NCBI RefSeq assembly: GCF_000814475.1
Contig: NZ_JSVC01000005.1
Span: forward strand, 124,001-188,000
Source of the DNA: Flavihumibacter solisilvae
Lineage (GTDB): Bacteria > Bacteroidota > Bacteroidia > Chitinophagales > Chitinophagaceae
DNA: 64,000 nt
Direction of reading: 5' to 3'
The translations under genes were made by a program, and so were the position numbers. Below, one piece after another: positions 2,668-59,555 of this stretch (position 1 is its first letter; every line of letters starts with the position of its first letter). The notes beneath the pieces are model-generated. The model had not been told where the DNA came from, made no database searches, and saw only the letters and a program-made list of their open reading frames with translations.

Positions 2668-2702
2668 ATTAAAAATTGAGAAGTAAAAAGTAAAAATAAA
2701 AA
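2668..2702 (-). repeat. 7-bp tandem array upstream of rpsT
   Basis: Read on the minus strand, degenerate heptamers follow one another (TTTTTTA, TTTTTAC, TTTTTAC, TTCTCAA, TTTTTAA) and run directly into the rpsT -7 box. It belongs to the TTTTNAN family described in the findings. Confidence 0.6.
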
Positions 2703-2822
2703 AATCTTGCGGGTAAATTTTTATGGGCAGGCGGCGCCACCCCTGATCGCTCTCGCTAAAACTCAAGCCAGTTACGGCTTTACGCTCACCGAATATTGAA
2801 CTGCGACACCTGCAGGCGCTAA

Positions 2823-2854
2823 TTTGGAATTTTGACTTTTGAGTTTTGACTTTT
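2823..2854 (+). repeat. 7-bp tandem array upstream of sucA
   Basis: Five heptamers in phase: TTTGGAA, TTTTGAC, TTTTGAG, TTTTGAC, TTTTCCC. Immediately downstream is GATATTTGC (2858-2866), close to the -7 consensus, so the array occupies the place of the -33 region of a likely sucA promoter. Confidence 0.6.
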
Positions 2855-2914
2855 CCCGATATTTGCATACCCAATTCCCGACCTAGTTCAAGGGTTATCA
2901 AAAGGGCTATCCAT

Positions 2915-5674
2915 ATGAAGGATTTTTCGTATATCACCAACGCCTCCCCGGCATTTATTGAGTCTCTGTACCAGGATTTTGTGAAAGACCCTAACAGTAT
3001 TGACCCGGAATTCCGGAGATTTTTTGAAGGATTCGATTTTGCTATCGGCCAGTATGGCTCCAACGGCCTGGCTGCCGCCACAGAAAAAGCAGGTGTAACA
3101 ACCGCTGCACCTGCAGATGTGGACATAAAAAAAGAGATCAGTGCCTACCGCCTCATTCTCGGGTACCGCAATAAAGGTCACCTGATAGCAAAAACCAATC
3201 CCATCCGGGAACGGAAGGACAGGGGTGCAAACCTTGACCTTGCATTCTTCGGCTTCACTGATGCTGATCTGGACCGTAACTTTTATGCCGGAAATATCAT
3301 TGGACTGGGTGTAACCAGCCTTCGTAATATCCTGGCGTTTCTACAGCAGACCTATGCCCATCACGTGGGTATCGAGTTTAAATACATCAGCAACCAGAAG
3401 AAGGTGGATTTCCTTACCACTGAAATGGAAAAGGAGTTCGGTAAGGCGATGCCGATCGAAAAAAAACGCCGCATACTCGAAAAACTGAACCAGGGAGTGA
3501 TCTTTGAAAAGTTCCTCCACACCAAATATATCGGCCAGAAAAGGTTTTCACTCGAAGGGGGTGAAACAACCATTCCCGCCCTTGATGCCATGATCAACAC
3601 AGGGGGTACGCATGATGTGCAGGAAGTGGTTATCGGAATGGCTCACCGCGGCCGATTGAACATTCTTGCCAATATCCTCGGCAAGACCTACGAACATATT
3701 TTCAGCGAATTCGAGGGTACCGCGGTCATGGACCAGACCATGGGAAGCGGTGATGTGAAATACCACATGGGCTACGGCAGTGATGTGCAGACGCCAGAAG
3801 GGAAGACAGTTCACCTGAAACTGTGTCCCAACCCTTCTCACCTCGAAGCTGTTGACCCCGTTGTTGTCGGTTTCGCCCGGGCGAAAGCAGACGTCATGTA
3901 CGATCGTAACTACGATAAGATCCTCCCGATCCTTATCCATGGCGATGCATCGATAGCCGGCCAGGGGATTGTTTATGAAGTACTCCAGATGAGCAACCTC
4001 GAAGGTTACTATACCGGTGGAACCATCCACTTTGTGATCAATAACCAGATCGGTTTTACAACGGATTTTGAAGAAGCCAGGAGCTCAGATTACTGTACGT
4101 CCATTGCAGCGACTGTACAGGCGCCGGTGTTACACGTGAACGGCGACGATCCGGAAGCTGTGGTGAAGTGTGCGGAGATCGCAACCCGTTACCGCCAGGA
4201 GTTCAACTCGGATATCTTTATCGATATGGTTTGTTACCGTCGCCATGGACATAACGAAGGCGATGATCCGAAATTTACTCAACCAGGACTGTACAACCTG
4301 ATCGACAAGCACCAGAATCCCCGTGAAGTATATACGACCTTCCTGCTCGAAAATGGTAAGTCGGATGCACGCCAGATGGCGCAGGAAATGGAAAAGAAGT
4401 TCTGGGGCGACCTGCAGGAACGCCTTGACGAAGTAAAACAGAACCCGCTTCCCTATAAATACCAGCAACCTGAGCTTGCCTGGAAAAGCCTGCGTAAGGC
4501 AACTGAGGAAGACTTTTTGCAATCGCCAGTAACCGGCATCAGCGCTGCAGATTTCGATAAGCTTTTTGAAAGCATCATGAAATGGCCGGATGATTTCAAA
4601 CCGCTCAAAAAAGTGGAAAAGATCATCCAGGATAAAATAAAATTATTCCGGGAAGAAGGCAAGATCGACTGGGCCACAGGTGAATTGCTCGCGTATGCAA
4701 GCCTGTTGCTTGACGGCAAGGATGTGCGAATGAGCGGACAGGATGTTCGCCGCGGTACCTTCAGTCATCGCCATGCCGTACTTCGCGACGAAGAAAACAA
4801 TAAATCATACAACAGGTTGAGCCGTATCGATGGCGCTACCGGTAAGTTTATGATCTACAACTCGCTTTTGAGCGAATACGGGGTGCTTGGCTTTGAATAT
4901 GGCTATGCCATGGCCAACCCGGACAGCCTCGTGCTGTGGGAAGCGCAATTCGGTGATTTCTGTAACGGCGCGCAGACCATGATCGATCAGTTCATCGCCG
5001 CCGGTGAGCAGAAATGGAATCGCATGAACGGTGTTGTTATGCTGCTTCCGCATGGATACGAAGGACAGGGACCTGAACACAGCTCTGCGAGGTTGGAAAG
5101 ATTCCTGCAACTCTGTGCTGAACAGAATATGGTGGTAACCAATATCACTACAGCAGGCAACTTCTTCCATGCATTGCGCAGGCAGCTTACCTGGCCTTTC
5201 CGTAAGCCGATGATCAATTTCGCGCCGAAGGCTAACCTGAGGTTGCCGGAATCCTATTCGATTAAAGATGAATTCCTGCATGGCGGATTCAGGGAAGTGA
5301 TTGACGATCCGTATATCAGCAACGAGAACGATGTGACGAAAGTGCTGTTCTGCAGTGGTAAGATCTATTTTGACCTTGCCGCACGCCAGCAGAAAGAGCA
5401 GCAGAAAGATGTGGCCATCATCCGCGTGGAGCAATTGTACCCGCTGCCTCAGAAGCAGCTCGATGCCCTGTACGCGAAGTATGATAAGGCAACCTGGTTC
5501 TGGGTTCAGGAAGAACCGCTCAACATGGGCGCAGCATCCTACCTTAAAATGAACCTTTCCAATATTAACTTTGGCGTGATCAGCCGGCAGCCAAGTGCAT
5601 CTACCGCAACCGGTTATGCGAAAGTGCATGGCCAGGAGCAGGCAGAGATTATTGACACTGCCTTTGGAATCTGA
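2915..5674 (+). CDS. sucA: 2-oxoglutarate dehydrogenase E1 component
   Basis: This is the thiamine-diphosphate E1 subunit of the 2-oxoglutarate dehydrogenase complex. It decarboxylates 2-oxoglutarate and passes the succinyl group to the lipoyl arm of E2 in the TCA cycle. The ATG at 2915 (MKDFSYITNAS, 919 residues) is preferred over an upstream in-frame ATG at 2846, because SPAFIESLYQDF is the usual E1o N-terminus and the extension lies in the promoter/array region. Family motifs are clear: IGMAHRGRLNIL, the ThDP region HGDASIAGQGIVYE followed by NNQIGFTT, and in the C-terminal half HGYEGQGPEHSSARLERFLQ. The E2 gene follows after 50 bp, giving a sucA-odhB operon. Confidence 0.97.
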   Translation: MKDFSYITNASPAFIESLYQDFVKDPNSIDPEFRRFFEGFDFAIGQYGSNGLAAATEKAGVTTAAPADVDIKKEISAYRLILGYRNKGHLIAKTNPIRERKDRGANLDLAFFGFTDADLDRNFYAGNIIGLGVTSLRNILAFLQQTYAHHVGIEFKYISNQKKVDFLTTEMEKEFGKAMPIEKKRRILEKLNQGVIFEKFLHTKYIGQKRFSLEGGETTIPALDAMINTGGTHDVQEVVIGMAHRGRLNILANILGKTYEHIFSEFEGTAVMDQTMGSGDVKYHMGYGSDVQTPEGKTVHLKLCPNPSHLEAVDPVVVGFARAKADVMYDRNYDKILPILIHGDASIAGQGIVYEVLQMSNLEGYYTGGTIHFVINNQIGFTTDFEEARSSDYCTSIAATVQAPVLHVNGDDPEAVVKCAEIATRYRQEFNSDIFIDMVCYRRHGHNEGDDPKFTQPGLYNLIDKHQNPREVYTTFLLENGKSDARQMAQEMEKKFWGDLQERLDEVKQNPLPYKYQQPELAWKSLRKATEEDFLQSPVTGISAADFDKLFESIMKWPDDFKPLKKVEKIIQDKIKLFREEGKIDWATGELLAYASLLLDGKDVRMSGQDVRRGTFSHRHAVLRDEENNKSYNRLSRIDGATGKFMIYNSLLSEYGVLGFEYGYAMANPDSLVLWEAQFGDFCNGAQTMIDQFIAAGEQKWNRMNGVVMLLPHGYEGQGPEHSSARLERFLQLCAEQNMVVTNITTAGNFFHALRRQLTWPFRKPMINFAPKANLRLPESYSIKDEFLHGGFREVIDDPYISNENDVTKVLFCSGKIYFDLAARQQKEQQKDVAIIRVEQLYPLPQKQLDALYAKYDKATWFWVQEEPLNMGAASYLKMNLSNINFGVISRQPSASTATGYAKVHGQEQAEIIDTAFGI

Positions 5675-5687
5675 TCCGGGGGCTCCC

Positions 5688-5722
5688 TTTTGAATTTTGA
5701 ATTTTCACTTTTGAATTTGAAA
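5688..5722 (+). repeat. 7-bp tandem array between sucA and odhB
   Basis: Heptamers TTTTGAA, TTTTGAA, TTTTCAC, TTTTGAA, TTTGAAA fill nearly the whole sucA-odhB gap and end just before the odhB ATG, where a ribosome-binding region would be. There is no room for a separate promoter after it. Confidence 0.6.
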
Positions 5723-5724
5723 CT

Positions 5725-7299
5725 ATGATCGATATAAAAGTTCCGACAGTTGGGGAATCTATTACAGAGGTAACCCTGGTAAAATGGTTAAAACCGAATG
5801 GTGCTTACGTTCAGCGCGATGAAGTAATTGCAGAATTGGAAAGTGAAAAGGCGACATTTGAATTGAATGCCGAGCAGGCCGGTGTGTTGAATACCCGCGC
5901 CGGCGAAGGCGACACACTTAAAATAGGTGATGTGGTAGCTTCTATTGATGAAACAGCTGCTGCGCCTGCCGGCGCTTCGGCAGCTACTGCTCCAACCAAC
6001 GGATCACCAGCTGCACCTGCTGCATCTGCACCCGCACCGGCTCCGGTTGCGGAAGCGAAAGCTGCAGGTAAGGGCATTATCGAAATGAAAGTGCCGACTG
6101 TTGGCGAATCGATCTCAGAAGTTACGCTCATCAAATGGCTGAAGAAAGAAGGTGATCTCGTTCAGCGCGACGAAGTACTGTGTGAACTGGAAAGCGAGAA
6201 AGCTACTTTCGAACTGAACGCTGAAGAAGCCGGCCAGCTTTCACCAATTGCAAAAGAAGGTGATGTGCTGAAGATCGGTGATATTGTGGCGAAGATCAAT
6301 ACTGACATAGCTGTTCCTGTCAGCTCGGGTAAAGCTGCAGCTGCTGAACAGGCAAAACCTGCTGCTGATGCCCGCCCTGCTGCCGTGAACGCACCCGTTA
6401 CTGCCGCACCTAACGATCTCAAGGCAAGCCCAGTTGCGGCAGCCATTATCGCCGATAAAAAAGTAGATCCTAAAACTGTGACCCCAAGCGGTACCGGCGG
6501 CAAGATCATGAAATTGGATGTGCTGGATGCACTCAATAATCCCGGACGTAAACCCGGGGCGGAACTCTTTACCCGCAGCGAAAAACGCGAAAAAATGAGC
6601 AACCTGCGGAAGACAGTAAGCCGCAGGCTTGTGGAAGCCAAGAACACTACGGCAATGCTTACTACTTTCAACGAGGTAGACATGGGGCCGATCATGGCGA
6701 TCCGAACTAAATACAAAGATAAATTCAAGGAAAGCCATGGTGTAAACCTCGGCTTCATGAGCTTCTTCACCAAAGCTGTATGTTTTGCCCTGCAGGAGTG
6801 GCCTGCTGTTAATGCATACATTGATGGCGACTCAATAGTGTATCACGACTTCTGTGATATCTCAATCGCAGTATCCGCACCGAAAGGACTTGTAGTTCCT
6901 GTAATCCGGAACGCCGAAAGCCTGGGAATGGCTGACATCGAAAAGAAAGTGGTTGAGCTGGCGACGAAAGCGCGCGACAACAAGCTGACCATGGAAGAAA
7001 TGCAGGGTGGTACCTTTACCATCACCAATGGTGGTGTGTTCGGTTCATTGATGAGCACGCCGATCATTAATATCCCGCAATCTGCTATCCTCGGAATGCA
7101 CAAGATCCAGGAACGCCCGATGGTGGAAAAAGGCCAGGTTGTGGTGAAGTCGATGATGTACCTCGCGCTCAGCTATGATCACCGCATTATCGATGGCCGC
7201 GAATCGGTTAGCTTCCTCGTAAGGGTGAAGGAACTGCTGGAAAACCCCGAACTCCTTTTGTTCGGTAAGGATCCCGTTAAGACACTGCTCGAAGTTTAA
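5725..7299 (+). CDS. odhB: 2-oxoglutarate dehydrogenase E2, dihydrolipoyl succinyltransferase (two lipoyl domains)
   Basis: The E2 core of the 2-oxoglutarate dehydrogenase complex, 524 residues. Domain order: lipoyl domain 1 (about 1-76, lipoyl Lys K42 in ESEKATFEL), an Ala/Pro-rich linker, lipoyl domain 2 (about 118-194, K159 in the same ESEKATFEL motif), a second flexible linker, an E3-binding domain (about 231-270), and the catalytic acyltransferase domain (about 290-524) with active-site motif [12 protein letters not shown] (H486). Most OdhB proteins have one lipoyl domain; two occur in some lineages. The two lipoyl domains are nearly identical, suggesting internal duplication. The gene lies directly downstream of sucA. 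Confidence 0.95.
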
Positions 7300-7305
7300 G
7301 TCTTC

Positions 7306-8472
7306 ATGTTTGCAAAAGCACATTTACAGACAGCCCTTCTGCTGGTACAGGCATATAAGGGAGAGATGCCTTTTGTCCATTACGCAAAACAGTATTTCTC
7401 GTCCCACAAAAAGCATGGGTCCCGGGATCGCAGGCAGATCCTTCAACTATGCTATGCCTATTTCCGGATGGGACAGGCCTTACCTGAATGGCCAGCCGAA
7501 AAGCGCATTCTGACCGGGCTGTTTTTCTGTTCAACAGAACCCAATGCGCTGCTGCAGGCCCTGGAACCGGTATGGAATGAGCAGGCTTCGATGCCACTGG
7601 AAATGAAGTGTGAACTTGCGGGCTGCAAAATCACCGATCTTACCATATTCCCCTTTCCCGGGCAAATGAGTGATGAACCTGATCAACTGGCATTTGCAGT
7701 TTCACACCTGGTGCAACCGGATCTTTTTATTCGCATTCGCCCTGGTTTTGAAGAGTATGTTATTAAGAAACTCGACAAGCTTGGTATCAGCTACTCCATC
7801 CCGGAACCCGGGTCTGTCCGGCTTCCAAACGGCTTTTCCGTTGAAGAGCATTTCACCCTGAACCAGCAGGTTGTAATTCAGGACCTGAGTTCGCAGCGCG
7901 TCGGAAGGATCATGAGGGCGGCACATGATTACTACCAGATGGCTGAAGAATTCAGGATCTGGGACTGCTGCGCAGCAAGTGGTGGAAAAGCTATTATGGC
8001 GAAAGACATGTTCCCGTCTGCACTGCTAACGGTCAGCGATATCCGATCTTCGATCCTGGAAAATCTCCGGCGTCGTTTCAAGGAAGCCAGGATCTTTGAA
8101 TTTGAAAGCCTTGTTGTAGACCTGTCGGTTGCCACTCCATTAATCCCGCGACAGGATCTGATCATCGCCGATGTACCCTGTTCCGGCAGTGGCACCTGGA
8201 GCAGGAACCCGGAAAACCTGGCTACATTCGACAAGGCAGAGATTACCAGGTATGCGGAACTCCAGCGGAAGATCATAGGCAACGCCATGCGAAAGCTCCA
8301 GCCCGGTGGCTTGCTATTGTATATCACCTGTTCCGTTTACAGGGATGAGAATGAAGAAAATGTAAATCACTTCTTAAGCAATTACCCGCTCGAATTAGTT
8401 TCACAGCAATTCATCAGTGGCTATTCAGAGAAGGCTGACAATATGTTCGCAGCTATTATGAAACACATCTAG
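7306..8472 (+). CDS. RsmB/NOP-family RNA (cytosine-C5) methyltransferase
   Basis: A 388-residue SAM-dependent methyltransferase of the RsmB/NOP2 family, which makes 5-methylcytosine in rRNA or tRNA. The catalytic core is at about 190-388: the SAM-binding CCAASGGKAIMAKD segment, ADVPCSGSGTWSRNPE with the first conserved Cys (C292), and YITCSVYRDENEENV with the nucleophilic Cys (C342). The N-terminal ~150 residues are helical and divergent and do not match a full NusB domain by eye. It starts 6 bp after the odhB stop, so cotranscription is likely although the functions are unrelated. The exact RNA target cannot be read. Confidence 0.88.
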   Translation: MFAKAHLQTALLLVQAYKGEMPFVHYAKQYFSSHKKHGSRDRRQILQLCYAYFRMGQALPEWPAEKRILTGLFFCSTEPNALLQALEPVWNEQASMPLEMKCELAGCKITDLTIFPFPGQMSDEPDQLAFAVSHLVQPDLFIRIRPGFEEYVIKKLDKLGISYSIPEPGSVRLPNGFSVEEHFTLNQQVVIQDLSSQRVGRIMRAAHDYYQMAEEFRIWDCCAASGGKAIMAKDMFPSALLTVSDIRSSILENLRRRFKEARIFEFESLVVDLSVATPLIPRQDLIIADVPCSGSGTWSRNPENLATFDKAEITRYAELQRKIIGNAMRKLQPGGLLLYITCSVYRDENEENVNHFLSNYPLELVSQQFISGYSEKADNMFAAIMKHI

Positions 8473-8599
8473 GTACCAGCAGCCGGTTATTGGCGATATA
8501 AACCATTTGTCGACCCTACCTTATTGTTTGTCTACTATCCATTTTCAGCAGATACCGGGCTACCTGTTAATGTCTACCTTTAGGTCAGAATAGCTGCCA

Positions 8600-10607: not shown

Positions 10608-10617
10608 ACTGATTCCT

Positions 10618-11316: not shown

Positions 11317-11326
11317 AACTCCCCTG

Positions 11327-11437
11327 TGGGTCCGCTATGGGTCCACTGTTCGTATACTGTCTGTTCACTGTTTCACCGGGAAAGCATAGCGATTCAGTGA
11401 AGGCATCCCGGAGTCATCCCGGTGTCATCCCGGTATC
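11327..11437. repeat. Two small 11-bp tandem repeat tracts
   Basis: Two units TGGGTCCGCTA / TGGGTCCACTG lie at 11327-11348, and three units ATCCCGGAGTC / ATCCCGGTGTC / ATCCCGGTATC at 11405-11437. Both have an 11-bp period. They fill the gap between two convergent genes (LytTR regulator and lipoprotein). No terminator hairpin with a T-run is apparent here. Confidence 0.6.
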
Positions 11438-11460
11438 AGAAGGTCTCTGTGGACGCTGAC

Positions 11461-12249: not shown

Positions 12250-12271
12250 AGCGTTGTAACGATTATCAGCC

Positions 12272-13369: not shown

Positions 13370-13389
13370 TTCTGTTCAGTTTAAGGGTG

Positions 13390-13397
13390 CAAATATA
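13390..13397 (-). promoter_or_regulatory. -7 promoter box of mnmA
   Basis: The minus strand reads TATATTTG then C, a full match to TAnnTTTG, ending 20 bp before the mnmA ATG. No convincing -33 TTTG is seen at the usual distance. Confidence 0.55.
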
Positions 13398-15172: not shown

Positions 15173-15196
15173 TTATTGACTTATTGATTTATTGAC
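15173..15196 (+). repeat. 8-bp tandem array upstream of aspartate kinase
   Basis: Three consecutive octamers TTATTGAC, TTATTGAT, TTATTGAC end 5 bp before the ATG of the aspartate kinase gene, where a ribosome-binding region would lie. The same octamer recurs at 16589-16620 and 56280-56311. Confidence 0.7.
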
Positions 15197-16552: not shown

Positions 16553-16620
16553 AGGTCAATAAGTGAATAGGTCGCGGTGCGACCCGGTTTATTCACTTAT
16601 TGACCTATTTACTTATTAAC
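16553..16620. repeat. Long inverted repeat with octamer arrays between convergent genes
   Basis: AGGTCAATAAGTGAATA (16553-16569) pairs perfectly with TATTCACTTATTGACCT (16589-16605), with an inner GGTCGC/GCGACC stem. The right arm continues as in-phase octamers TTATTCAC, TTATTGAC, CTATTTAC, TTATTAAC (16589-16620). The position between two convergent stops suits a bidirectional terminator, but there is no simple T-run. Confidence 0.7.
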
Positions 16621-16645
16621 TGCAATTATTTCATCGCAGGGCCAA

Positions 16646-22644: not shown

Positions 22645-23079
22645 ATGGAAACACTGGAGTACCCCGACTACCCGTTTCGGATACGAACCAACGAAGGCAA
22701 GCGCCAGATCTTTGATGTTGCACGGAAAAGGTGGGTGTTGTTCACCCCGGAAGAGTGGGTACGGCAGAACTTCCTTCAATACCTGATCCAGGTGAAACAA
22801 TATCCTCCCGCACTCATCGCAGTTGAAAAAGTGCTGCAACTTGGTGAGCTTACGAAAAGGTTCGATATCCTCGTTTATGACAGGAATCACCAGCCGTGGA
22901 TGATGGTTGAATGCAAAGCCATGGAAGTGCCGCTGAATGACGAAGTGCTGCACCAGTTGCTTCGTTATAATATCGCTATTCCCGTGCCTTACCTCATCAT
23001 TACCAACGGAAGTAAAGCCTATTTCTTTCAACGCCTGGATGGGAAACTGACAGAGATTCCCAGCCTCCCGGGTCATTGA
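22645..23079 (+). CDS. Solitary HSDR_N-type PD-(D/E)XK nuclease-fold protein
   Basis: A 144-residue protein made only of a type I restriction enzyme R-subunit N-terminal-like domain. The PD-(D/E)XK residues are D74 (KRFDILVYD) and E89-x-K91 (MMVECKAMEV), followed by the Q-x-x-x-Y element Q104-Y108 (HQLLRY) of RecB-like nucleases. No helicase, methylase or specificity gene is nearby. Standalone versions are common in Bacteroidota and their role is unknown. It sits alone between the divergent AMP nucleosidase and convergent gdhA genes, and is followed by a bidirectional terminator. Confidence 0.85.
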   Translation: METLEYPDYPFRIRTNEGKRQIFDVARKRWVLFTPEEWVRQNFLQYLIQVKQYPPALIAVEKVLQLGELTKRFDILVYDRNHQPWMMVECKAMEVPLNDEVLHQLLRYNIAIPVPYLIITNGSKAYFFQRLDGKLTEIPSLPGH

Positions 23080-23104
23080 TTGAAAATTCAAAACTTATAA
23101 TGAA

Positions 23105-23161
23105 GAATTAAAAAAGGGTCAACCTCGCGGAGACCCTTTTTAAATTTTTACTTTTTAATTC
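23105..23161. terminator. Bidirectional terminator with flanking heptamer array
   Basis: AAAAAAGGGTC pairs with GACCCTTTTT around an 11-nt loop (23110-23141), with A- and T-runs on the two sides, between convergent genes. The right flank continues as heptamer-like TTTTTAC, TTTTTAA to the gdhA end; GAATTAAAAAA on the left mirrors it. Confidence 0.85.
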
Positions 23162-23164
23162 GAC

Positions 23165-24583
23165 CTATGGGAAAATCCCAAGCTCAGCATAACTCGTTGC
23201 TACCTTGTTGATCGCAACAACATATGCAGCAGTCCGCATGTCGGGAATTGAAGGGTTCTTTTGCCAGATCTCCATGATTTCACGGGTTGCAGAGATCATG
23301 GTTTCTTCAAGACCGGAATATACCAGGTCAACTTCATCGGGACCATGCTCGATCATTGTCTTCTCCCGATCGTTTACTTTTTTACCTGTCAGTCCTTCAA
23401 TCTGGTTGAGGATGTTCTTGTTCTGGTTCTCAGTAAAGCGTTTTTCCAGTCTTCCATAACGTACGTGGCTAAGATTTTTCAGCCACTCGAAATAAGAAAC
23501 TGTTACACCACCTGCGTTCAGGTACATATCCGGAACGACCAGTACACCTTTGGAAGCAAACACTTCATCTGCCTCCGGAGTAAGCGGGCCGTTCGCAGCT
23601 TCACCGATGATCTTTGCTTTTACCCGTGGTGCGTTGTCACCATTGATCACGTTTTCCAGGGCAGCAGGAATCAGGATCTCGCAATCCAGTTCAAGTGCAT
23701 CTGATGAGTTGGTGATATTAGTGGCACCGGGGAAATTCAGGATGGAACCTGTTTTCTTACGATGCTGGAATACTTCTTCTTCATTCAGTCCGTCAGGATT
23801 TGTGATAGCACCTTCGAATTCGGAAATGGCAATCACCTTGGCACCGCCTTCGCGGAAATATTTGGCTGCATGGTACCCTACGTTTCCGAGTCCCTGTACC
23901 ACTACTGTCTTTCCTTCAATACCGGTGCTGAGTCCCAGCTTCTTCATTATATCATCCATGTTGCACACTTCACGGATACCGAAGAACACACCAAGACCGG
24001 TTGCTTCGCGACGACCGCGAACACCACCCTGAGCTACCGGTTTACCGGTTACACAACCGAGTGCATCCACTTCTCCCGGGTTCATACTGAGATAGGTGTC
24101 GAGGATCCAGGCCATTTCACGTTCACCTGTTCCGTAGTCAGGAGCAGGTACGTCGGTACCAGGTCCGATGAAGTTCTTTTTGATGAGCTCATGGGTGTAA
24201 CGACGCGTGATCTTTTCAAGTTCGTATGGAGTATATTTTTTCGGGTCGATGGTTATCCCACCTTTTGCACCACCGAACGGTACGTTCACGATCGCGCATT
24301 TGTAGGTCATGAGTGCGGCAAGGGCCATCACTTCATCGAGGTTTACCGTGGTCGCGAAACGGATTCCGCCCTTACATGGTGTTTTGTGATGTGAATGCTG
24401 TACCCGGTATGCTTTTATCACTTCGATCTTGTCCCCGATCTTAACAGGGAAGTGCATCCTGTAAACTGAGTTGCACTGTTTGATCTGTTCCAGAATTCCC
24501 GGATCCCAATTCGTAAACCTGGCTGCCTTGTCAAAACTCTGCTCTACTGCTCCGAAAAAACTGTACTCTTGATGTCCAGACAT
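23165..24583 (-). CDS. gdhA: Glu/Leu/Phe/Val-type dehydrogenase, probably glutamate dehydrogenase
   Basis: A 472-residue dehydrogenase interconverting glutamate and 2-oxoglutarate plus ammonium. N-terminal substrate domain: [16 protein letters not shown] with the catalytic-type Lys, and [21 protein letters not shown]-terminal Rossmann domain: [16 protein letters not shown] with the GxGNVG nucleotide motif, then [13 protein letters not shown]. The family assignment is secure; preference for glutamate and for NAD or NADP is inferred. It is the last gene of a minus-strand series tdk-ccmB-ccmC-ccmD-gdhA, 51 bp after ccmD. Confidence 0.92.
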
Positions 24584-36287: not shown

Positions 36288-36320
36288 ATTTTGAATTTTT
36301 AATTTTCAATTTTGACTTTG
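36288..36320 (+). repeat. 7-bp tandem array overlapping a start region
   Basis: Heptamers TTTTGAA, TTTTTAA, TTTTCAA, TTTTGAC, TTTGAAT follow each other in phase. The array runs into the apparent TTG start codons (36312 or 36318) of the next gene. Confidence 0.6.
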
Positions 36321-36938
36321 AATATCGCATCATCCCTCGAAAAGATAGTCGCAGATCCGGCACTTCATTCCCGCTGGCTGAACACGCTCTCCATGCTTGA
36401 GAATGCAGGCGCAAAAAAGATCAAGCAGTGCGAACATCCTGTATTTGTACCGGAGGAAATTCTTAAACACGCTGCAGAAGAAGCGCGACATGCCTGGTAC
36501 CTCAAAAAGCAGTTAAAGAAGATAGGTTCGGGATTGTGTCCTACCTACGAATCACCTTATCTGATGGCTCCAATTGTGAGTTCAAGATATCTTCACCGCC
36601 TGGACATTACCATCAGCCGCTACCTCAGGGAAACTTTCGGATTTCGCAATCATGACCTGAAATATGCCGCTTACCTGCTGGTGACCTACGCTATTGAAGT
36701 GAGGGCCGACGAATTATATCCCATCTACCAGGATGTACTTCGCCGCAACAAAAGCTCAATCAGCGTGCATAACATTATCACGGAAGAGCAGCAACACCTC
36801 GCTTCTATGGAAGCGCAGCTACAGAAACTTTCGGACAGGTGGAAGGAACTTTGTGAAATTGCCTGCTCTGAGGAAGCAAAGCTCTACAGCGAGTGGGTTT
36901 ATGCTGTTACGAAAGAAGTACCTGCAGTACCCGTGTAA
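36312..36938 (+). CDS. Ferritin-like putative di-iron protein
   Basis: A roughly 208-residue all-helical protein with no ATG before residue 28; start is TTG at 36312 or 36318. Residues fit a four-helix di-iron site: E30 (helix 1), E57-x-x-H60 (EEARHAW, helix 2), E129 or E134 (AIEVRADELY, helix 3), E159-x-x-H162 (TEEQQHLASM, helix 4). This E, ExxH, E, ExxH pattern is that of ferritin-like oxidases and rubrerythrin relatives. No signal peptide is present. I cannot assign a reaction. It sits between rfbD and a serine hydrolase and has its own promoter. Confidence 0.72.
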   Translation: MTLNIASSLEKIVADPALHSRWLNTLSMLENAGAKKIKQCEHPVFVPEEILKHAAEEARHAWYLKKQLKKIGSGLCPTYESPYLMAPIVSSRYLHRLDITISRYLRETFGFRNHDLKYAAYLLVTYAIEVRADELYPIYQDVLRRNKSSISVHNIITEEQQHLASMEAQLQKLSDRWKELCEIACSEEAKLYSEWVYAVTKEVPAVPV

Positions 36939-38360: not shown

Positions 38361-38361
38361 G

Positions 38362-49791: not shown

Positions 49792-49815
49792 TCATTTTCC
49801 CGAGGGCTTTTATGT

Positions 49816-49823
49816 TACATTTG
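49816..49823 (+). promoter_or_regulatory. -7 promoter box of hscA
   Basis: TACATTTG followed by C matches TAnnTTTG and lies 25 bp upstream of the hscA ATG. Confidence 0.45.
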
Positions 49824-49848
49824 CATCTGAACAAAAGACTGATGTATT

Positions 49849-54333: not shown

Positions 54334-54374
54334 GCACGCAATTTATAGGGAACGGCCGTTTTTTTGAAAAAGGA

Positions 54375-54405
54375 TTTGGATAAAGTGGATTCTTTCTTAT
54401 CTTTG
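54375..54405 (+). promoter_or_regulatory. rpsU promoter (complete Bacteroidota type)
   Basis: TTTG (54375-54378), a 19-bp spacer, and TATCTTTG (54398-54405) give the textbook -33/-7 arrangement of Bacteroidota sigma-A promoters. Transcription should start near 54411, leaving a short leader that contains the strong Shine-Dalgarno. Confidence 0.75.
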
Positions 54406-54421
54406 CCATCCTAAAATTACC

Positions 54422-54430
54422 AAAGGAGGT
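54422..54430 (+). promoter_or_regulatory. Strong Shine-Dalgarno of rpsU
   Basis: AAAGGAGGT, an extended complement to the 16S rRNA 3' end, lies 8 nt before the rpsU ATG. Genes around it lack such sites. In Bacteroidota the anti-SD is masked by bS21 itself, so this site probably serves autoregulation (see findings). Confidence 0.85.
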
Positions 54431-54438
54431 ATATTACC

Positions 54439-54636
54439 ATGCTGATCATCGATTCAAAAGATTGCGAAAACATTGACAAGGCGCTCAAAAAGTACAAGAA
54501 GAAGTTTGAAAAAGCAAAAGTGCTGGTACAATTGAGAGATCGTCAGTCCTTCACCAAGCCGTCAGTAAGACGTCGTGCCCAGGTGTTGAAAGCAGTCTAT
54601 AAGCAACAGGTCGCCAGCGGCAAGTTCGAAAGCTAA
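54439..54636 (+). CDS. rpsU: 30S ribosomal protein bS21
   Basis: A 65-residue basic protein of bS21 length, with KKYKKKFEKAKVLVQLRDRQSFTKPSVRRRAQ. bS21 sits beside the 16S 3' end and, in Bacteroidota, helps sequester the anti-Shine-Dalgarno. The gene has a complete promoter and an unusually strong Shine-Dalgarno, and ends at a strong terminator that abuts the xerC start. Confidence 0.95.
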   Translation: MLIIDSKDCENIDKALKKYKKKFEKAKVLVQLRDRQSFTKPSVRRRAQVLKAVYKQQVASGKFES

Positions 54637-54664
54637 CAGTTAATTCTGTTCATAATAGTGTGAA

Positions 54665-54707
54665 GGGATAGCAGCAAAGCATTAGTTTTGTTGCTATCCC
54701 CTTTTTT
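54665..54707 (+). terminator. Strong intrinsic terminator of rpsU, abutting the xerC start
   Basis: GGGATAGCAGCAAA pairs with TTTGTTGCTATCCC over 14 bp (one G-U pair, 8-nt loop), followed by C and six T. The T-run ends at 54707 and the xerC ATG begins at 54708, so this hairpin covers the region where a ribosome would bind. Confidence 0.9.
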
Positions 54708-55616
54708 ATGCAAATCATCGAAGACAGGCATCTTTCCGATTTCATCCAATACCTCCGGTTTGAGAAGCGGTATTCCGATCATACTGTCCGCGCCTACCAG
54801 GATGATCTGCTGCAGTTCCAGCAGTACCTTTTGAAAGAATATGAGTTGAATGCACCTGAGGCCGCATCCTCCATGATGATCCGCAGCTGGATGAGTTCAC
54901 AGCGCGAGGGCCCGGATGGTGTTTCCCCGCGAACGATCAACAGGAAACGGTCTACCCTGAGATCCTTTTACAAATATTTACTGAAGAAGGGTGTGGTAAC
55001 CGTGTCGCCCGTAGCAGCAATTGCGGCGCCCAAGGTTGGGAGGAAATTGCCAGTTTACGTGGAAGAGCACCAGGCGGAAGAATTGTTTTCACGCGGCAAT
55101 TACGGTGATGGCTGGAAAGCCATGACTACAGAATTGATGTTAAAGATTTTTTACCAGACCGGAATGCGTCGCAGTGAGTTGATACAGTTGAAATATAGTC
55201 ACATAAACTTCTTCACGAATACAGTCCGGATCCTGGGTAAGGGTAAGAAGGAACGTGTTGTTCCGATGAACCCCGAGCTGTTGCAGCAAATTCAGAAATA
55301 CGAAGAATCGAAGAAGGGGATCTGGGAAGATTATGACCAGAAGTTCCTGTTGCTGACGGAAAAAGGGAAGAGACTTTACCCGCATTATGTTTACCAGATT
55401 GTGACATCATTCCTTAAAGAATTCACCACGTTGAGTAAGAGGAGTCCGCATATCCTGCGACATAGTTTTGCCACACATCTGCTGAACAATGGTGCCGCAC
55501 TAAATGCGGTGAAGGAGCTGCTCGGACACTCAAGCCTGGCTGCTACTCAGGTATATACGCATACAACAATAGGCAAGCTTAAGGAAGTGCATAAAAAGGC
55601 GCATCCGAAGGGATGA
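54708..55616 (+). CDS. xerC: XerC-type tyrosine recombinase
   Basis: A 302-residue site-specific recombinase of the XerC/XerD type that resolves chromosome dimers. The N-terminal SAM-like DNA-binding domain is at about 1-95; catalytic residues are in TGMRRSEL (Arg), HILRHSFATHLL (HxxR), LGHSSLAATQVYTH (His and the nucleophilic Tyr). The start codon directly follows the rpsU terminator T-run, leaving no space for a ribosome-binding region outside the hairpin. Gene order rpsU-xerC-hpf is conserved in Bacteroidota. Confidence 0.93.
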   Translation: MQIIEDRHLSDFIQYLRFEKRYSDHTVRAYQDDLLQFQQYLLKEYELNAPEAASSMMIRSWMSSQREGPDGVSPRTINRKRSTLRSFYKYLLKKGVVTVSPVAAIAAPKVGRKLPVYVEEHQAEELFSRGNYGDGWKAMTTELMLKIFYQTGMRRSELIQLKYSHINFFTNTVRILGKGKKERVVPMNPELLQQIQKYEESKKGIWEDYDQKFLLLTEKGKRLYPHYVYQIVTSFLKEFTTLSKRSPHILRHSFATHLLNNGAALNAVKELLGHSSLAATQVYTHTTIGKLKEVHKKAHPKG

Positions 55617-55803
55617 ATTTATGTAGTAATATGTTGGATGTGAAGAGCTTGTGAAAATTAAAAATTATGGTGTGCATTCTTGGAAAATGGGTCTCATTAT
55701 CCTAACTTCATAGCAACACAATTGTTATATCAATACAAAGCCTATGACGAATCCTTACACAGAAAGTTCTTTATTTATTGTTCACTCGTAAAACGTGATT
55801 GCT

Positions 55804-56106
55804 ATGAACGTTAACATTCAGACGGTTCACTTTGATGCCGATGTAAAATTGATAGAGTATGTTACCAACAAATTGAGCAAGCTTGGGACATTTCATGACC
55901 GGATCATCAAAGTGGATGTATTTTTGAAATTGGATAATGTAGTGCATACGATTAAAGACAAAGTAGCGGAGATCCGAGTACATGTGCCCCGAAACGACTT
56001 CTTCGTAAAAGCAAGTTCGAAATCCTTTGAGGAGTCTTTTGACAGTGCGTTGGGTTCACTCATCAATCAGATAAAAAGAAAAAAAGAAAAACAATATGCC
56101 GGCTAA
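55804..56106 (+). CDS. hpf: Ribosome hibernation-promoting factor, short form
   Basis: A 100-residue HPF/RaiA-family protein (beta-alpha-beta-beta-beta-alpha fold) that binds the decoding region of idle 30S subunits. N-terminal MNVNIQTVHFDAD, VDVFLKLDN and a basic C-terminus IKRKKEKQYAG. The ATG at 55804 is preferred over a GTG at 55795. It has no long-form dimerisation domain. The gene lies 187 bp after xerC and is followed by a strong terminator. Confidence 0.93.
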   Translation: MNVNIQTVHFDADVKLIEYVTNKLSKLGTFHDRIIKVDVFLKLDNVVHTIKDKVAEIRVHVPRNDFFVKASSKSFEESFDSALGSLINQIKRKKEKQYAG

Positions 56107-56111
56107 CGGCA

Positions 56112-56139
56112 AAAGACCTCTTCGGAGGTCTTTTTTTTT
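56112..56139 (+). terminator. Intrinsic terminator of hpf
   Basis: AAGACCTC and GAGGTCTT form an 8-bp stem with a TTCG tetraloop, followed by a run of about eight T. It lies 6 bp past the hpf stop. Confidence 0.95.
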
Positions 56140-56279
56140 GTCCTTAAGCCGGGTAGGTTTCTATATGGTCATTGTGCCTCTGCATGAAGAGTTTTCTATT
56201 TGAGTTTAGCGTGAAACCTTTCCCTGGCGGCTCATTTGCCGGGCACCTTAGTTTCAGGTTGATGAAGCTCCCGGAATGC
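56140..56279. other. Gene-free stretch upstream of the tRNA cluster
   Basis: Between the hpf terminator and the octamer array at 56280 I see no convincing open frame, RNA gene or promoter. The whole gene-free interval runs to the first tRNA at 56423 and holds only the array and one promoter. Confidence 0.5.
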
Positions 56280-56311
56280 CAATTCACTTATTGATTTATT
56301 CTCTTATTCCC
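56280..56311 (+). repeat. 8-bp tandem array upstream of the tRNA cluster
   Basis: Four octamer-spaced units: CAATTCAC, TTATTGAT, TTATTCTC, TTATTCCC. They match the TTATTNAY family seen before aspartate kinase and at 16589. The tRNA promoter lies about 40 bp downstream. Confidence 0.6.
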
Positions 56312-56349
56312 CTTCGACGTCTTTTTTTAAAAAAAATCTTTTCAAAATT

Positions 56350-56378
56350 TTTGTATTTCTCAAATTCTGTTACCTTTG
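56350..56378 (+). promoter_or_regulatory. Promoter of the four-tRNA cluster
   Basis: TTTG (56350-56353), a 17-bp spacer and TACCTTTG (56371-56378) fit the -33/-7 pattern. The first tRNA starts 44 bp downstream of the -7 box. Confidence 0.6.
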
Positions 56379-56422
56379 CCATCCCGAAACAAAAAAGGGG
56401 TAGTTCTTTAAAGTATTTGATC

Positions 56423-56495
56423 GCCACTTTAGCTCAGCTGGTAGAGCAACTGATTTGTAATCAGTAGGTCGTTGGTTCGATTCCGACAAGTGGCT
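56423..56495 (+). tRNA. tRNA-Thr (anticodon TGT)
   Basis: A 73-nt cloverleaf: acceptor GCCACTT/AAGTGGC, anticodon stem ACTGA/TCAGT with loop TTTGTAA, T-loop GGTTCGATTCC, discriminator T. CCA is not encoded. First of four clustered tRNAs upstream of tuf. Confidence 0.96.
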
Positions 56496-56547
56496 CCCAC
56501 AGTACTGAAACGGAAGAATGTATTAATACCGGTTTCAATATTGAATC

Positions 56548-56630
56548 GGGCAGGTTCCAGAGCGGCCAAATGGGGCGGACTGTAAATCCGCTGTCTTTCG
56601 ACTTCAGAGGTTCGAATCCTCTCCTGCCCA
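56548..56630 (+). tRNA. tRNA-Tyr (anticodon GTA)
   Basis: An 83-nt type II tRNA with a long variable arm: acceptor GGGCAGG/CCTGCCC, anticodon stem GCGGA/TCCGC with loop CTGTAAA, T-loop GGTTCGAATCC, discriminator A. CCA is not encoded. Confidence 0.96.
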
Positions 56631-56671
56631 CGATTGCAGGCTGCAGTCAGCCATCGGGGATGATGTAATAA

Positions 56672-56744
56672 GCGGAAGTAGCTCAATTGGTAGAGCGATA
56701 GCCTTCCAAGCTATAGGTTGCGAGTTCGAGACTCGTCTTCCGCT
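56672..56744 (+). tRNA. tRNA-Gly (anticodon TCC)
   Basis: A 73-nt cloverleaf: acceptor GCGGAAG/CTTCCGC, anticodon stem ATAGC/GCTAT with loop CTTCCAA, T-arm GAGTTCGAGACTC, discriminator T. CCA is not encoded. Confidence 0.96.
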
Positions 56745-56796
56745 CACTGGTGTTAAATGTTTGGGTGTTCGATGTAAAGCGCCCTTCAGCCTCTTC

Positions 56797-56868
<72 letters not shown>

Positions 56869-56975
56869 CTAACGAGCCTGTATCCGGATAGTTATTTGCC
56901 GATTAATGGTGATAATTGTCCGGTGGTTCTTGTAAATGAACGTTTTGAATTGTGCAGGGAAGGGTATACGTCGTG

Positions 56976-56983
56976 TACCTTTG
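56976..56983 (+). promoter_or_regulatory. -7 promoter box of tuf
   Basis: TACCTTTG followed by C is a perfect TAnnTTTG box. A TTG lies 23 bp upstream (56950-56952). The leader to the tuf ATG would be about 60 nt. Confidence 0.55.
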
Positions 56984-57051
56984 CAGGTACATAAATTATA
57001 TGAAGACGATTTGTCTTCCAGTTTTAAACCACAACTTAAAAACAAAATAAA

Positions 57052-58239
57052 ATGGCAAAAGAGACCTTTAAGAGGGAAAAGCCCCACGTTAACGTAGGTA
57101 CTATTGGCCACGTTGACCACGGTAAAACCACCTTAACTGCCGCTATCACATCTATTCTGGCTCAGAAAGGTTTGGCGACGGCTAAGAAGTATGATGAAAT
57201 TGATGGAGCTCCTGAAGAAAAAGAGCGTGGTATCACCATCAATACTGCACACGTTGAATATCAGACAGCAAACCGTCACTATGCTCACGTTGACTGTCCT
57301 GGTCACGCTGACTATGTGAAGAACATGATTACCGGTGCTGCTCAGATGGACGGTGCCATCCTGGTTGTGGCTGCTACAGATGGTCCAATGCCTCAAACTA
57401 AAGAACACATCCTGCTGGCTCGCCAGGTTGGTGTACCCAAGATCGTTGTGTTCATGAATAAAGTTGACCTGGTTGACGATGCTGAACTGCTTGAACTGGT
57501 TGAAATGGAGATCCGTGACCTGCTTAGCTCTTATGGCTTCGACGGTGACAACACTCCGATCATCAAAGGTTCTGCAACCGGTGCCCTCGCTGGTGAAGAC
57601 AAGTGGGTTAAAGCAGTAGAAGAGCTGATGGATGCTGTTGACAGCTACATCCCGCTGCCTCCGCGCCCGGTTGATCTGCCGTTCCTGATGTCTGTAGAAG
57701 ACGTATTCTCTATCACTGGTCGTGGTACCGTTGCTACAGGTCGTATCGAGCGTGGCCGTATCAAGGTTGGTGAAGGTGTTGAGATCGTAGGTCTGATGCC
57801 TGCGGCAATGACTTCTACCGTGACAGGTGTGGAAATGTTCAAGAAACTCCTCGACGAAGGTGAAGCTGGTGACAACGCCGGTCTGCTCCTCCGTGGTATT
57901 GAAAAGAAAGATATCCGTCGTGGTATGGTAATCTGTAAGCCAGGTTCCATCACTCCGCACACTGAATTCAGAGGCGAAGTATACGTACTGAGCAAAGAAG
58001 AAGGTGGCCGTCACACTCCGTTCTTCAACAAATACCGTCCTCAGTTCTACTTCCGTACTACGGACGTAACTGGTGAGTGTACTCTTGCTGAAGGAACTGA
58101 AATGGTGATGCCTGGTGATAACACCAACCTGCGTGTTACCCTCATCCAGCCGATCGCTATGGAAAAAGGTCTGAAATTCGCGATCCGCGAAGGTGGCCGT
58201 ACCGTAGGTGCCGGACAGGTGACTGAAATCCTGAAGTAA
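57052..58239 (+). CDS. tuf: Elongation factor Tu
   Basis: A 395-residue GTPase delivering aminoacyl-tRNA to the ribosome. G-motifs: [10 protein letters not shown] (19-26 region), [12 protein letters not shown] and GSATG; domains 2 and 3 follow with the usual [13 protein letters not shown] and C-terminal [11 protein letters not shown]. It has its own promoter and is followed by an AT-rich hairpin, then tRNA-Trp, secE and nusG, the common bacterial arrangement. Confidence 0.98.
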
Positions 58240-58267
58240 TCTGATATTCAGATAATTGAAATATGAA

Positions 58268-58315
58268 AATTAAAAAGTAAAATGCGGGATCATACCCAAT
58301 TTTTACTTTTTAATT
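58268..58315. terminator. AT-rich palindrome downstream of tuf (inverted heptamer arrays)
   Basis: AATTAAAAAGTAAAA (58268-58282) pairs perfectly with TTTTACTTTTTAATT (58301-58315); an inner GGG/CCC lies in the loop. The right arm continues as heptamers TTTTTAA, TTTTTAC, TTTTGAT up to tRNA-Trp. It may stop or attenuate tuf transcription. Confidence 0.6.
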
Positions 58316-58336
58316 TTTACTTTTGATCTTTCATTT

Positions 58337-58410
58337 ACGGGCATAGTTCAATGGTAGAATAGCGGTCTCCAAAACCGTTGATACGGGTTCGAATCCTGTT
58401 GCCCGTGCCA
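58337..58410 (+). tRNA. tRNA-Trp (anticodon CCA), 3' CCA encoded
   Basis: Acceptor ACGGGCA/TGCCCGT (58337-58343 with 58400-58406), anticodon stem GCGGT/ACCGT with loop CTCCAAA, T-arm with GGTTCGAATCC, discriminator G at 58407, then genomically encoded CCA (58408-58410). secE begins 10 bp later. It is the only tRNA of the six here with CCA in the DNA. Confidence 0.95.
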
Positions 58411-58420
58411 GAAGAGAAAC

Positions 58421-58615
58421 ATGACTAAAATAACAACATACTTCAGCGAGTCTTATAAAGAGCTTGTCGAAAAAGTAACCTGGCCAACCTGGGTTCAGTT
58501 GCAGCAATCCACCATCATCGTATTGGTGGCAACTGTACTGATCACTCTCATCGTTTGGCTTATGGACTTCGCATCTAACTCTTTATTGAAATTCATCTAT
58601 TCATTTTTTGCCTAA
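58421..58615 (+). CDS. secE: Preprotein translocase subunit SecE
   Basis: A 64-residue membrane protein with the SecE pattern: amphipathic ESYKELVEKVTWPTWVQLQQS followed by one membrane helix (about 28-50). It stabilises SecY in the translocon. It starts 10 bp after tRNA-Trp and its stop overlaps the nusG ATG by one base (TAATG). Confidence 0.95.
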   Translation: MTKITTYFSESYKELVEKVTWPTWVQLQQSTIIVLVATVLITLIVWLMDFASNSLLKFIYSFFA

Positions 58616-59181
58616 TGGAAGAAATTGTCAATCAACAGGAGACCAAGTGGTATGTACTGCGTGTCGTGAGCGGAAAAGAACGGAAGGTTAAGGAATATCT
58701 GGACAAAGAGATCAGCCGCGGCGGATGGAGTGAGGTGGTTAAGCAGGTATTTCTTCCGGTTGAAAAGGTGTATAAGGTTCAGAATGGTAAAAAAGTAATG
58801 CGCGAACGCAACTACTATCCCGGTTATGTAATGATCGAGATCGTAGAGGGCAAACTGGGTGATGACCTACGCGATACCATAAAGAATACCAGCAACGTCA
58901 TTCATTTCCTTGGTAAAGATAATCCGATCGCCCTCCGCAAGGCAGAAGTGAACAAGATGCTCGGTAAGATGGATGAAATGAGCGAAGCAGGCGGTATGAG
59001 CATGAGCGAACCGTTCATTGTAGGCGAAACCATCAAGATCATCGAAGGACCGTTCAACGATTTCAATGGTATCATTGAAGAAGTAAACGACGAAAAGAAA
59101 AAGCTCAAAGTCACCGTTAAGATCTTCGGAAGATCGACACCGGTGGAACTGAACTATATGCAGGTGGAAAAACTCTCCTGA
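58615..59181 (+). CDS. nusG: Transcription termination/antitermination factor NusG
   Basis: A 188-residue NusG: NGN domain (about 8-110) with KWYVLRVVSGKERKV and the YYPGYVMIE motif, then a C-terminal KOW domain (about 133-188) with VGETIKIIEGPFNDFNG. It binds RNA polymerase and links it to Rho or the ribosome. It is coupled to secE. A terminator follows, so rplK starts a new transcript. Confidence 0.97.
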   Translation: MEEIVNQQETKWYVLRVVSGKERKVKEYLDKEISRGGWSEVVKQVFLPVEKVYKVQNGKKVMRERNYYPGYVMIEIVEGKLGDDLRDTIKNTSNVIHFLGKDNPIALRKAEVNKMLGKMDEMSEAGGMSMSEPFIVGETIKIIEGPFNDFNGIIEEVNDEKKKLKVTVKIFGRSTPVELNYMQVEKLS

Positions 59182-59199
59182 TTATAAATCAAGAACTTT

Positions 59200-59234
59200 A
59201 AAGAGCCGTCCTTTGAGACGGCTCTTTGCATTTT
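59200..59234 (+). terminator. Terminator of the secE-nusG transcript
   Basis: AAAGAGCCGTC and GACGGCTCTTT form an 11-bp perfect stem with a 6-nt loop; a short T-run (GCATTTT) follows. It lies 18 bp after the nusG stop. Confidence 0.85.
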
Positions 59235-59524
59235 AGGAGTCCAGCGCGGCCGAAACAACCGTAACTTTTTTATTATTACATGACTCTAGTCCTCGAAGAG
59301 AGGCGGGGACTTGCATCGTGGAACCTGTGCCTAAAAAATGAATCAACCACCCAAAATTTGAAAAATTTCGACTTTTTTCTGACCGCATTCGTCCGTATTC
59401 CGGCCTAAGCCGGGAAGAAGCCGAGAAGACCAAAGTTGGTCGCAAGCTGGACCCTAGCTGGACCCTACGTGGAATTTACATTTCGCTGGTTTTCAACCTT
59501 TTGGAATTTTGTGGTTTTTGGGCG
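59235..59524. other. Non-coding gap between nusG and the rplK promoter
   Basis: No supported gene. It holds an 11-bp perfect tandem duplication, AGCTGGACCCT twice (59445-59466), and a small GGCCTAAGCCGGG inverted motif near 59402. The nusG-rplK gap of 477 bp is unusually long for this operon and seems to hold regulatory DNA. Confidence 0.55.
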
Positions 59525-59555
59525 TTTTAGTTTTCCATTTTTCATTTTTCCTTTG
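59525..59555 (+). repeat. 7-bp tandem array upstream of the rplK promoter box
   Basis: TTTTAG then heptamers TTTTCCA, TTTTTCA, TTTTTCC, TTTGTAA run directly into the -7 box. It is the same arrangement as upstream of rpsT and sucA. Confidence 0.55.

What the first reader, a model, noticed from the sequence alone, without database searches (positions are those of the whole stretch)
2668..59555. Dispersed 7-bp tandem arrays (TTTTNAN) placed by rule at promoters, start codons and gene ends
At least seven intergenic regions carry in-phase heptamers: 2668-2702 (minus), 2823-2854, 5688-5722, 23137-23161, 36288-36320, 58300-58328 and 59525-59555. In six of them the T-rich strand is the coding strand of the next gene. 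Three run straight into a -7 box or near-match (rpsT, sucA, rplK), two end at a start codon (odhB, ferritin-like), and two sit at gene ends as part of hairpins (23105, 58268). Units vary in sequence while the 7-bp period holds, unlike a simple A+T bias. This could be a slippage-prone element tuning promoters or initiation, or a phased protein-binding site. I know of no description.
Basis: partly seen in the sequence, partly recalled or inferred. Interest (0 to 1): 0.7.

Follow-up and report, generated by a model that had tools for sequence, protein, structure and literature searches.

The report
Seven-base repeats bracketing bacterial gene spacers
Short runs of a seven-base repeat sit in the gaps between genes of this bacterium and many relatives, often as mirror-image pairs that could fold into a hairpin; the letters of the repeat change from species to species while the seven-base step and the mirror layout recur, which gives a lead on why such repeats are common between bacterial genes.

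Summary
The arrays are real. In 46 kb of this genome's spacers, exact TTTTNA runs (3+ units, period 7) number 10, shuffles 0.0. Genome-wide I found 52; between co-directional genes the T-strand is coding in 34 of 41. The promoter rule fails: exact -7 boxes follow 4 of 52, 2.5 expected. TTTTNAN is one of many interchangeable units. In Bacteroidota spacers period 7 is in excess, and like arrays sharing a spacer are inverted 24 times, direct 2. At one orthologous spacer (sucA|odhB) 12 of 57 records carry period-7 arrays, shuffles 0.0; in 9 of the 12 the arms match each other better than other species' arms. Spacers with array plus inverted repeat favour convergent genes (none in this genome's sample). 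Some indels are whole units. The core between arms is reversed in 2 of 26 comparisons, direct in 9, uninformative in 15. Best reading: slippage-built hairpin brackets kept as gene-end hairpins; single T-rich arms end up at starts. Mechanism and function are inferred. Three of the seven window arrays have no mate.

The parts
2669..2703 (-). TTTTNAN array (5 units, 3 exact) upstream of rpsT; mate of 2823 in a divergent spacer
2823..2857 (+). TTTTNAN array (5 units, 3 exact) in front of the sucA promoter core TTTTCCCGATATTTGC
   Evidence: core GATATTTGC kept in 11 of 12 relatives compared, array not
5688..5722 (+). TTTTNAN array (5 units, 4 exact) between the sucA stop and the odhB ATG; no mate seen, no significant fold
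23080..23100 (-). short array (3 units, 2 exact), left arm of the hairpin between convergent genes
23138..23158 (+). TTTTNAN array (3 exact units), right arm of that hairpin, ends next to the stop of the 23165-24583 minus-strand gene
   Evidence: fold z -3.7 (+) and -3.3 (-)
36289..36323 (+). TTTTNAN array (5 units, 4 exact) running into the probable TTG start (36312) of a ferritin-like gene; no mate
   Evidence: fold z -1.8
58256..58283 (-). array (4 units, 2 exact), left arm of the hairpin after tuf
58300..58334 (+). TTTTNAN array (5 units, 4 exact), right arm of the hairpin after tuf, ending just before the tRNA gene 58337-58407
   Evidence: fold z -5.7; similar arm read by eye in 11 of 14 tuf spacers including this one
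59531..59566 (+). degenerate period-7 stretch in front of rplK, overlapping TAATTTTG; no mate, no significant fold
   Evidence: not seen by eye in 13 relatives' rplK leaders

Best explanation
The TTTTNAN arrays are one local family of a kind of intergenic element spread through Bacteroidota: short tandem arrays, most often of 7-bp units, that form at the edges of gene spacers and are often mirrored at the other edge (A-rich or purine-rich arm after a stop, T-rich or pyrimidine-rich arm before a start or at a converging stop), so that the spacer can fold into a hairpin around a core. Shown: excess of period 7, inverted rather than direct arm pairs, arms that match within a site but not between species, some whole-unit indels, preference for convergent spacers in the relatives, and a reversed core at two sites (one clear, one weaker). 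Inferred: units are added by replication slippage; the second arm is written or kept complementary by template switching in the hairpin, which can also flip the core; what is kept is a hairpin at gene ends (two-way terminator, insulator or transcript-end protector), not its letters. Single T-rich arms next to starts, the commoner form in this genome, are tolerated as U-rich leader or spacer DNA.
For: Period-7 excess against shuffles in three Bacteroidota groups (36 vs 4.4, 14 vs 2.9, 7 vs 1.0) and 24 inverted against 2 direct pairs. 12 of 57 orthologous sucA|odhB spacers with period-7 arrays, other periods 0-1; 9 of 12 with arms matching above the 95th percentile of between-species arms. T-strand ends nearer the downstream gene edge in 31 of 36 arrays facing a stop, summed over three genomes. 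Array plus strong inverted repeat in 23 of 80 convergent, 45 of 379 co-directional, 8 of 87 divergent spacers. Hairpin folds at tuf and 23070-23165. A-arm mate upstream in 15 of 47 arrays of this genome against 20 of 191 control spacers. Core reversed with arms kept at two spacers.
Against: 32 of 47 arrays of this genome have no mate by my criterion, and no sampled spacer here has both a TRF array and a strong inverted repeat. The edge rule is weak on the start side (38 of 62 summed) and not significant in this genome alone (29 of 47, p 0.14). Periods 8 and 9 are also in excess in G022 and period 8 in G017. Gaps of 9 nt are as common as gaps of 7 nt. Core reversal rests on 2 of 26 comparisons; at the weaker site G022 matches G060 reversed (p 0.002) but not G059 (p 0.35), although G059 and G060 match each other directly. 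The simple terminator scan did not list either window hairpin. 13 of the 24 inverted pairs come from one genome, G022. No expression data.
Confidence: 0.42

Rival explanations
1. Plain neutral microsatellites: slippage makes short tandem repeats wherever selection allows, that is in spacers; inverted pairs come from template switching alone and nothing is selected.
For: Patchy distribution: 12 of 14 congeners have 0-1 hits, G010 has 3 and G014 has 15; unit sequence turns over at the same site; some indels are whole units.
Against: Recurrence at one orthologous spacer in 12 of 57 records, convergent-spacer preference and orientation bias are not expected without a bias of site; a mutational bias could still give them.
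Confidence: 0.33
2. Start-proximal leaders: the T-rich arrays act in the mRNA next to start codons, as sites for ribosomal protein S1 or another RNA-binding protein, tuning initiation (the proposal made for TAACTGA repeats).
For: In this genome 15 of 37 arrays facing a start lie within 30 nt of it, 13 of 15 in two phases modulo 7; 34:7 coding-strand bias.
Against: Arrays at stops and in convergent spacers; unrelated units at the same sites; only 3 G022 distances to a start under 31 nt among 13 start-facing arrays.
Confidence: 0.13
3. Dispersed mobile or REP-like hairpins: a repeated element with inverted ends that was copied into many spacers.
For: Similar arms at many places in G022, G059 and G060; a dispersed hairpin of another kind stands in G060 where G022 and G059 have a bracket.
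Against: Cores differ between the sites compared; arms abut stop and start codons; arm letters are site- and species-specific at sucA|odhB.
Confidence: 0.05
4. A promoter element: the arrays place repeated -33-like boxes or an upstream element in front of a -7 box.
For: rpsT, sucA and rplK arrays run into a -7 box or near-match; one-mismatch boxes follow 26 of 52 arrays against 15.3 expected.
Against: Exact boxes follow 4 of 52, 2.5 expected; the sucA -7 core is kept in relatives without the array.
Confidence: 0.05

Closest known systems
Intergenic TAACTGA heptamer direct repeats (MacGregor 2015, PMC4679880; abstract and the Introduction, Cyanobacteria and Bacteroidetes sections read)
   Same: 7-bp units, intergenic, often just upstream of start codons, patchy across lineages including a few Bacteroidetes; 7-nt indels between related strains.
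   Different: One fixed unit there; here many units, degenerate, often as inverted pairs. TAACTGA x2 does not occur in the window, up to 2 mismatches.
Abundant tandem heptamers of prokaryotic spacers (SPADE survey, PMC6344855; passages read; Mrazek 2007 only as cited in PMC4679880)
   Same: Same unit length and intergenic place; the survey says there was no clear clue to function.
   Different: The passages seen do not describe inverted pairs, gene-edge placing or same-site turnover; 'inverted' does not occur in the held text.
Small loop inversions in chloroplast spacers (trnH-psbA, PMC2903610; abstract and outline read)
   Same: A core between inverted repeats found in both orientations among relatives.
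   Different: Plastid DNA, and polymorphism shown within species; here two sites between species, arms made of tandem arrays.
Intergenic inverted repeats, terminators and REP sequences (PMC13155455 and PMC12306157, passages read; PMC3733652, search listing only)
   Same: Intergenic hairpins; in the first paper arms are more conserved than loops near terminators.
   Different: Those works treat perfect or fixed-family palindromes; here arms are degenerate tandem arrays of many families.

Membership tests
Tandem heptamer simple sequence repeats | Tandem 7-bp units above chance, in spacers | tested here: met
   10 exact arrays vs 0.0 in shuffles; 36 vs 4.4, 14 vs 2.9, 7 vs 1.0 in three groups
Tandem heptamer simple sequence repeats | Length changes by whole units | tested here: inconclusive
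   Clear examples, but 9-nt gaps equal 7-nt gaps in number and no within-species data
TAACTGA repeats (MacGregor 2015) | Unit TAACTGA | tested here: not met
   0 matches of TAACTGA x2 in the window with up to 2 mismatches
TAACTGA repeats (MacGregor 2015) | Forward orientation close to a start codon | tested here: inconclusive
   34:7 forward, 15 of 37 within 30 nt of a start in this genome; stops also used
Intrinsic terminator | Stable hairpin after a stop, followed by a T-run | tested here: inconclusive
   Significant folds at tuf and 23070-23165; the simple scan did not list them; five window arrays have no such fold or were not folded
Intrinsic terminator | Ends transcripts | not testable with these tools
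   no transcript data
Hairpin-loop inversion (as in plastid spacers) | Core found in both orientations between kept arms | tested here: inconclusive
   2 reversed, 9 direct, 15 uninformative of 26 comparisons; 18 identical bases in reverse complement at the clearer site
REP/BIME | Conserved palindrome family with a short end tag and a partner transposase | not tested
   arms differ between species at sucA|odhB; tag and transposase not searched

The most novel reading that the evidence does not exclude
Bacteroidota keep a sequence-agnostic hairpin system: spacers are fitted with mirrored heptad arms whose letters are free but whose 7-bp step, mirror order and place at the gene edges are maintained, by a copying or strand-exchange activity that also flips the core, so that gene-end hairpins can be rebuilt from any sequence.
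Probability: 0.1. Interest if true: 0.85.

Novelty: new variant of a known kind. Interest (0 to 1): 0.52.

Why it matters
A survey of 7006 prokaryotic genomes reports heptamers as the most abundant tandem repeats of spacers and says there is no clear clue to their function (PMC6344855, passage). The mirrored layout, the placing at gene edges and the same-site turnover give a testable lead: the hairpin, not the unit, may be what matters. Spacers of this phylum may also differ by reversed cores and unit changes, which ordinary alignments would misread.

Tried and rejected
The built-in control (pattern read backwards) is no control, since TTTTNAN arrays match it too; TTTTKAM against its mirror was used instead. 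The list looked as if nearly all G022 arrays lay on one strand, which suggested a replication-strand bias; my own scan found minus-strand arrays that the list lacks, so I dropped it as a listing artefact.

General T-over-A skew as the cause of orientation: spacers without arrays show no such skew in G000 and G022 and a weak one in the same direction in G017. Promoter rule: not above chance for exact -7 boxes. Start context as seed: base frequencies before starts gave no clear heptad signal, with a home-made gene caller. Rfam gave six tRNA matches in the window and no other family at the gathering threshold. Core reversal in the window's genus: at most one bracketed spacer per genome pair, direct in six pairs, uninformative in one, absent in two. 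A whole-spacer direct/inverted comparison was dominated by conserved flanks and was replaced by a core-only one.

Rows left out: one search grouped 74 of the 80 loci (six unassigned) and skipped loci under 5 kb; groups follow record titles and my judgement (L080 is titled Sphingomonadales, L045 and L057 Sphingobacteriales; all three were put with Chitinophagales). One search used 57 of 68 loci (11 spacers outside 20-400 nt). could not place 5 of 52 G000 and 12 of 40 G022 arrays. For G017 and G022 one search each was made and loci were given for the first 30 places only. G022, G059 and G060 are close relatives, so their counts are not independent. Gene starts come from my own caller and can be off.
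Full report
What the genome is. The window is G000:C45:124001-188000 of a 5.41 Mb assembly in 75 contigs. Named records nearest to its OdhB are Chitinophagaceae; Flavihumibacter sp. CACIAM 22H1 is the most alike (84% over its best segment).

The arrays. All seven stretches are present with period-7 rows in Tandem Repeats Finder, scores 30-48. In 400 kb of this genome the spacers hold 10 exact arrays of 3+ TTTTNA units at period 7 against 0.0 in 20 shuffles; with one mismatch per unit and 4+ units 16 against 0.2, and period 8 also shows 8 against 0.3. Samples of G022 and G017 give 5 and 6 exact arrays, shuffles 0.0. The pattern TTTTKAM x3 occurs in 24 of 59 genomes searched, this one included, with 341 hits in G022 and 0-5 in the mirrored control of any genome, and in 41 of 296 genomes drawn from the phylum, where in some (G227, G231, G263, G349) the control is as high. 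Within the genus 12 of 14 relatives have 0-1 hits, G010 has 3 and G014 has 15.

Placement in this genome. Around the hits I found 52 exact arrays; 47 have two called neighbours: 34 read with both, 7 against both, 3 divergent, 3 convergent. Distances to a start under 30 nt are 2, 2, 2, 9, 9, 9, 9, 9, 10, 10, 13, 16, 17, 19, 24: 13 of 15 are 2 or 3 modulo 7, so a degenerate unit often continues to the start. Of 10 arrays whose T-strand meets a stop, 9 lie at -17 to 8 nt from it. Exact -7 boxes follow 4 of 52, 2.5 expected. Start and stop closeness are real; the promoter rule is not.

The wider kind. De novo detection shows many families besides TTTTNAN, such as ATTCACC/ATTGACC, GAATTAA, ACTGAATA (8) and CACTAAGGA (9). 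Period 7 is in excess in spacers of three groups of named Bacteroidota (36 vs 4.4; 14 vs 2.9; 7 vs 1.0) and hardly in five alphaproteobacterial loci (2 vs 1.0, 8 kb only); periods 8 and 9 are also in excess in G022, period 8 in G017, period 11 in G000. When one spacer holds two adjacent arrays of like unit and period they are inverted 24 times and direct 2 times; 13:0 of these come from G022 and 5:2 from G017.

One site, many letters. The sucA|odhB spacer, home of the window's 5688 array, was compared in 57 named records: 12 hold a period-7 array (16 of 21 lag matches), periods 4-6 and 8-12 give 0 or 1, and shuffles average 0.0 at period 7 with a maximum of 1. In 9 of the 12 the left and right parts pair at scores 27-36; parts from different species average 13.9, 95th percentile 24.9, maximum 34 of 132 pairs. 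The own scores were taken at the best split, but shuffles split in the same way average 10.5-16.3 and never reach the nine. L036, L041 and L038 are not brackets. So arms agree within a site and mostly not between species, while step and layout recur.

In the window's genus the sucA promoter keeps GATATTTGC in 11 of 12 relatives, while the DNA in front of it is TTTTGAC heptamers in G000, 8-mer-like repeats in G009, another heptamer in G011 and other sequence elsewhere (by eye). No rplK leader of 13 relatives shows the G000 array, the ferritin-like gene was found in 4 of 15 genomes with the array in G000 only, and the tuf hairpin arm is seen in 11 of 14 spacers including G000 (by eye).

Anatomy. 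In G022 and G017 the two arms often stand at the two edges of a spacer around a core of about 20-45 nt. The T-strand ends nearer the downstream gene edge in 31 of 36 arrays facing a stop and 38 of 62 facing a start, summed over three genomes; per genome 29 of 47 (p 0.14), 18 of 23 (p 0.011) and 22 of 28 (p 0.0037). Spacers with both an array and a strong inverted repeat are 23 of 80 convergent, 45 of 379 co-directional and 8 of 87 divergent, the order expected of gene-end hairpins; none is in the G000 sample and three of the five genomes are close relatives. In this genome 15 of 47 arrays have an A-rich mate upstream, against 20 of 191 control spacers.

Change over time. In orthologous spacers of seven genome pairs, isolated gaps of 7, 14 and 21 nt number 9, 3 and 3; gaps of 8 and 9 nt number 4 and 9, gaps of 4, 10 and 12 nt none. 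Some are plain units, e.g. three heptamers between G004 and G005 (median protein identity 97.4%); others are not. Comparing cores between G022, G059 and G060, 9 of 26 comparisons are direct, 2 reversed, 15 uninformative; at the 1% threshold used about 0.3 reversals would be expected by chance (my estimate). The clearer case (spacer 129, 132) has 18 identical bases in reverse complement; it contains self-complementary pieces, yet scores 22 reversed and 12 direct. The weaker case is G022 against G060 (25, shuffles 12.1, p 0.002); G022 against G059 shows no reversal (p 0.35) although G059 and G060 match directly.

Reading. The evidence supports slippage-built arms and, at some sites, hairpin-linked copying and perhaps flipping; it suggests that a gene-end hairpin is what is kept. 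It shows no function. Three of the seven window arrays (5688, 36288, 59525) have no mate and no significant fold (z 0.1, -1.8, 0.1); for these only the single-arm or leader reading is left.

Literature. Searches list heptamer abundance (PMC4679880: abstract and three sections read; PMC6344855: passages read) and plastid loop inversions (PMC2903610: abstract and outline), and no title or abstract start describing mirrored heptamer arms in Bacteroidota spacers. The library is open-access only, so this is weak evidence of novelty. The TANNTTTG -7 consensus is recalled; conversion of imperfect palindromes by template switching is mentioned in a passage of PMC4060949.

Noticed in passing
window 11404-11438 (CATCCCGGTGT), 59445-59473; G000 spacers: Excess of 11-bp tandem arrays in this genome's spacers, 23 against 3.9 in shuffles, many of them rich in G+C.
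   Followed up: no
window 15173-15196 and 16589-16621: Octamer arrays TTATTGAC and TTATTCAC, a sister family of the heptamers.
   Followed up: no
G022, G059, G060 spacers 130 and 132 (L131-L140, L294-L313): A hairpin of another kind (GACAAGC/ATCCC arms, similar core at two places) stands in G060 where G022 and G059 have a CTTAGTG bracket.
   Followed up: partly
G022:C1:2432347-2432499 and 1902497-1902593: Unusually long TTTTGAC/TTTTTAC arrays of about 22 and 14 units.
   Followed up: no
window 56423-56868 and 58337-58407: tRNA genes next to tuf; the array 58300-58334 ends just before the last of them.
   Followed up: partly
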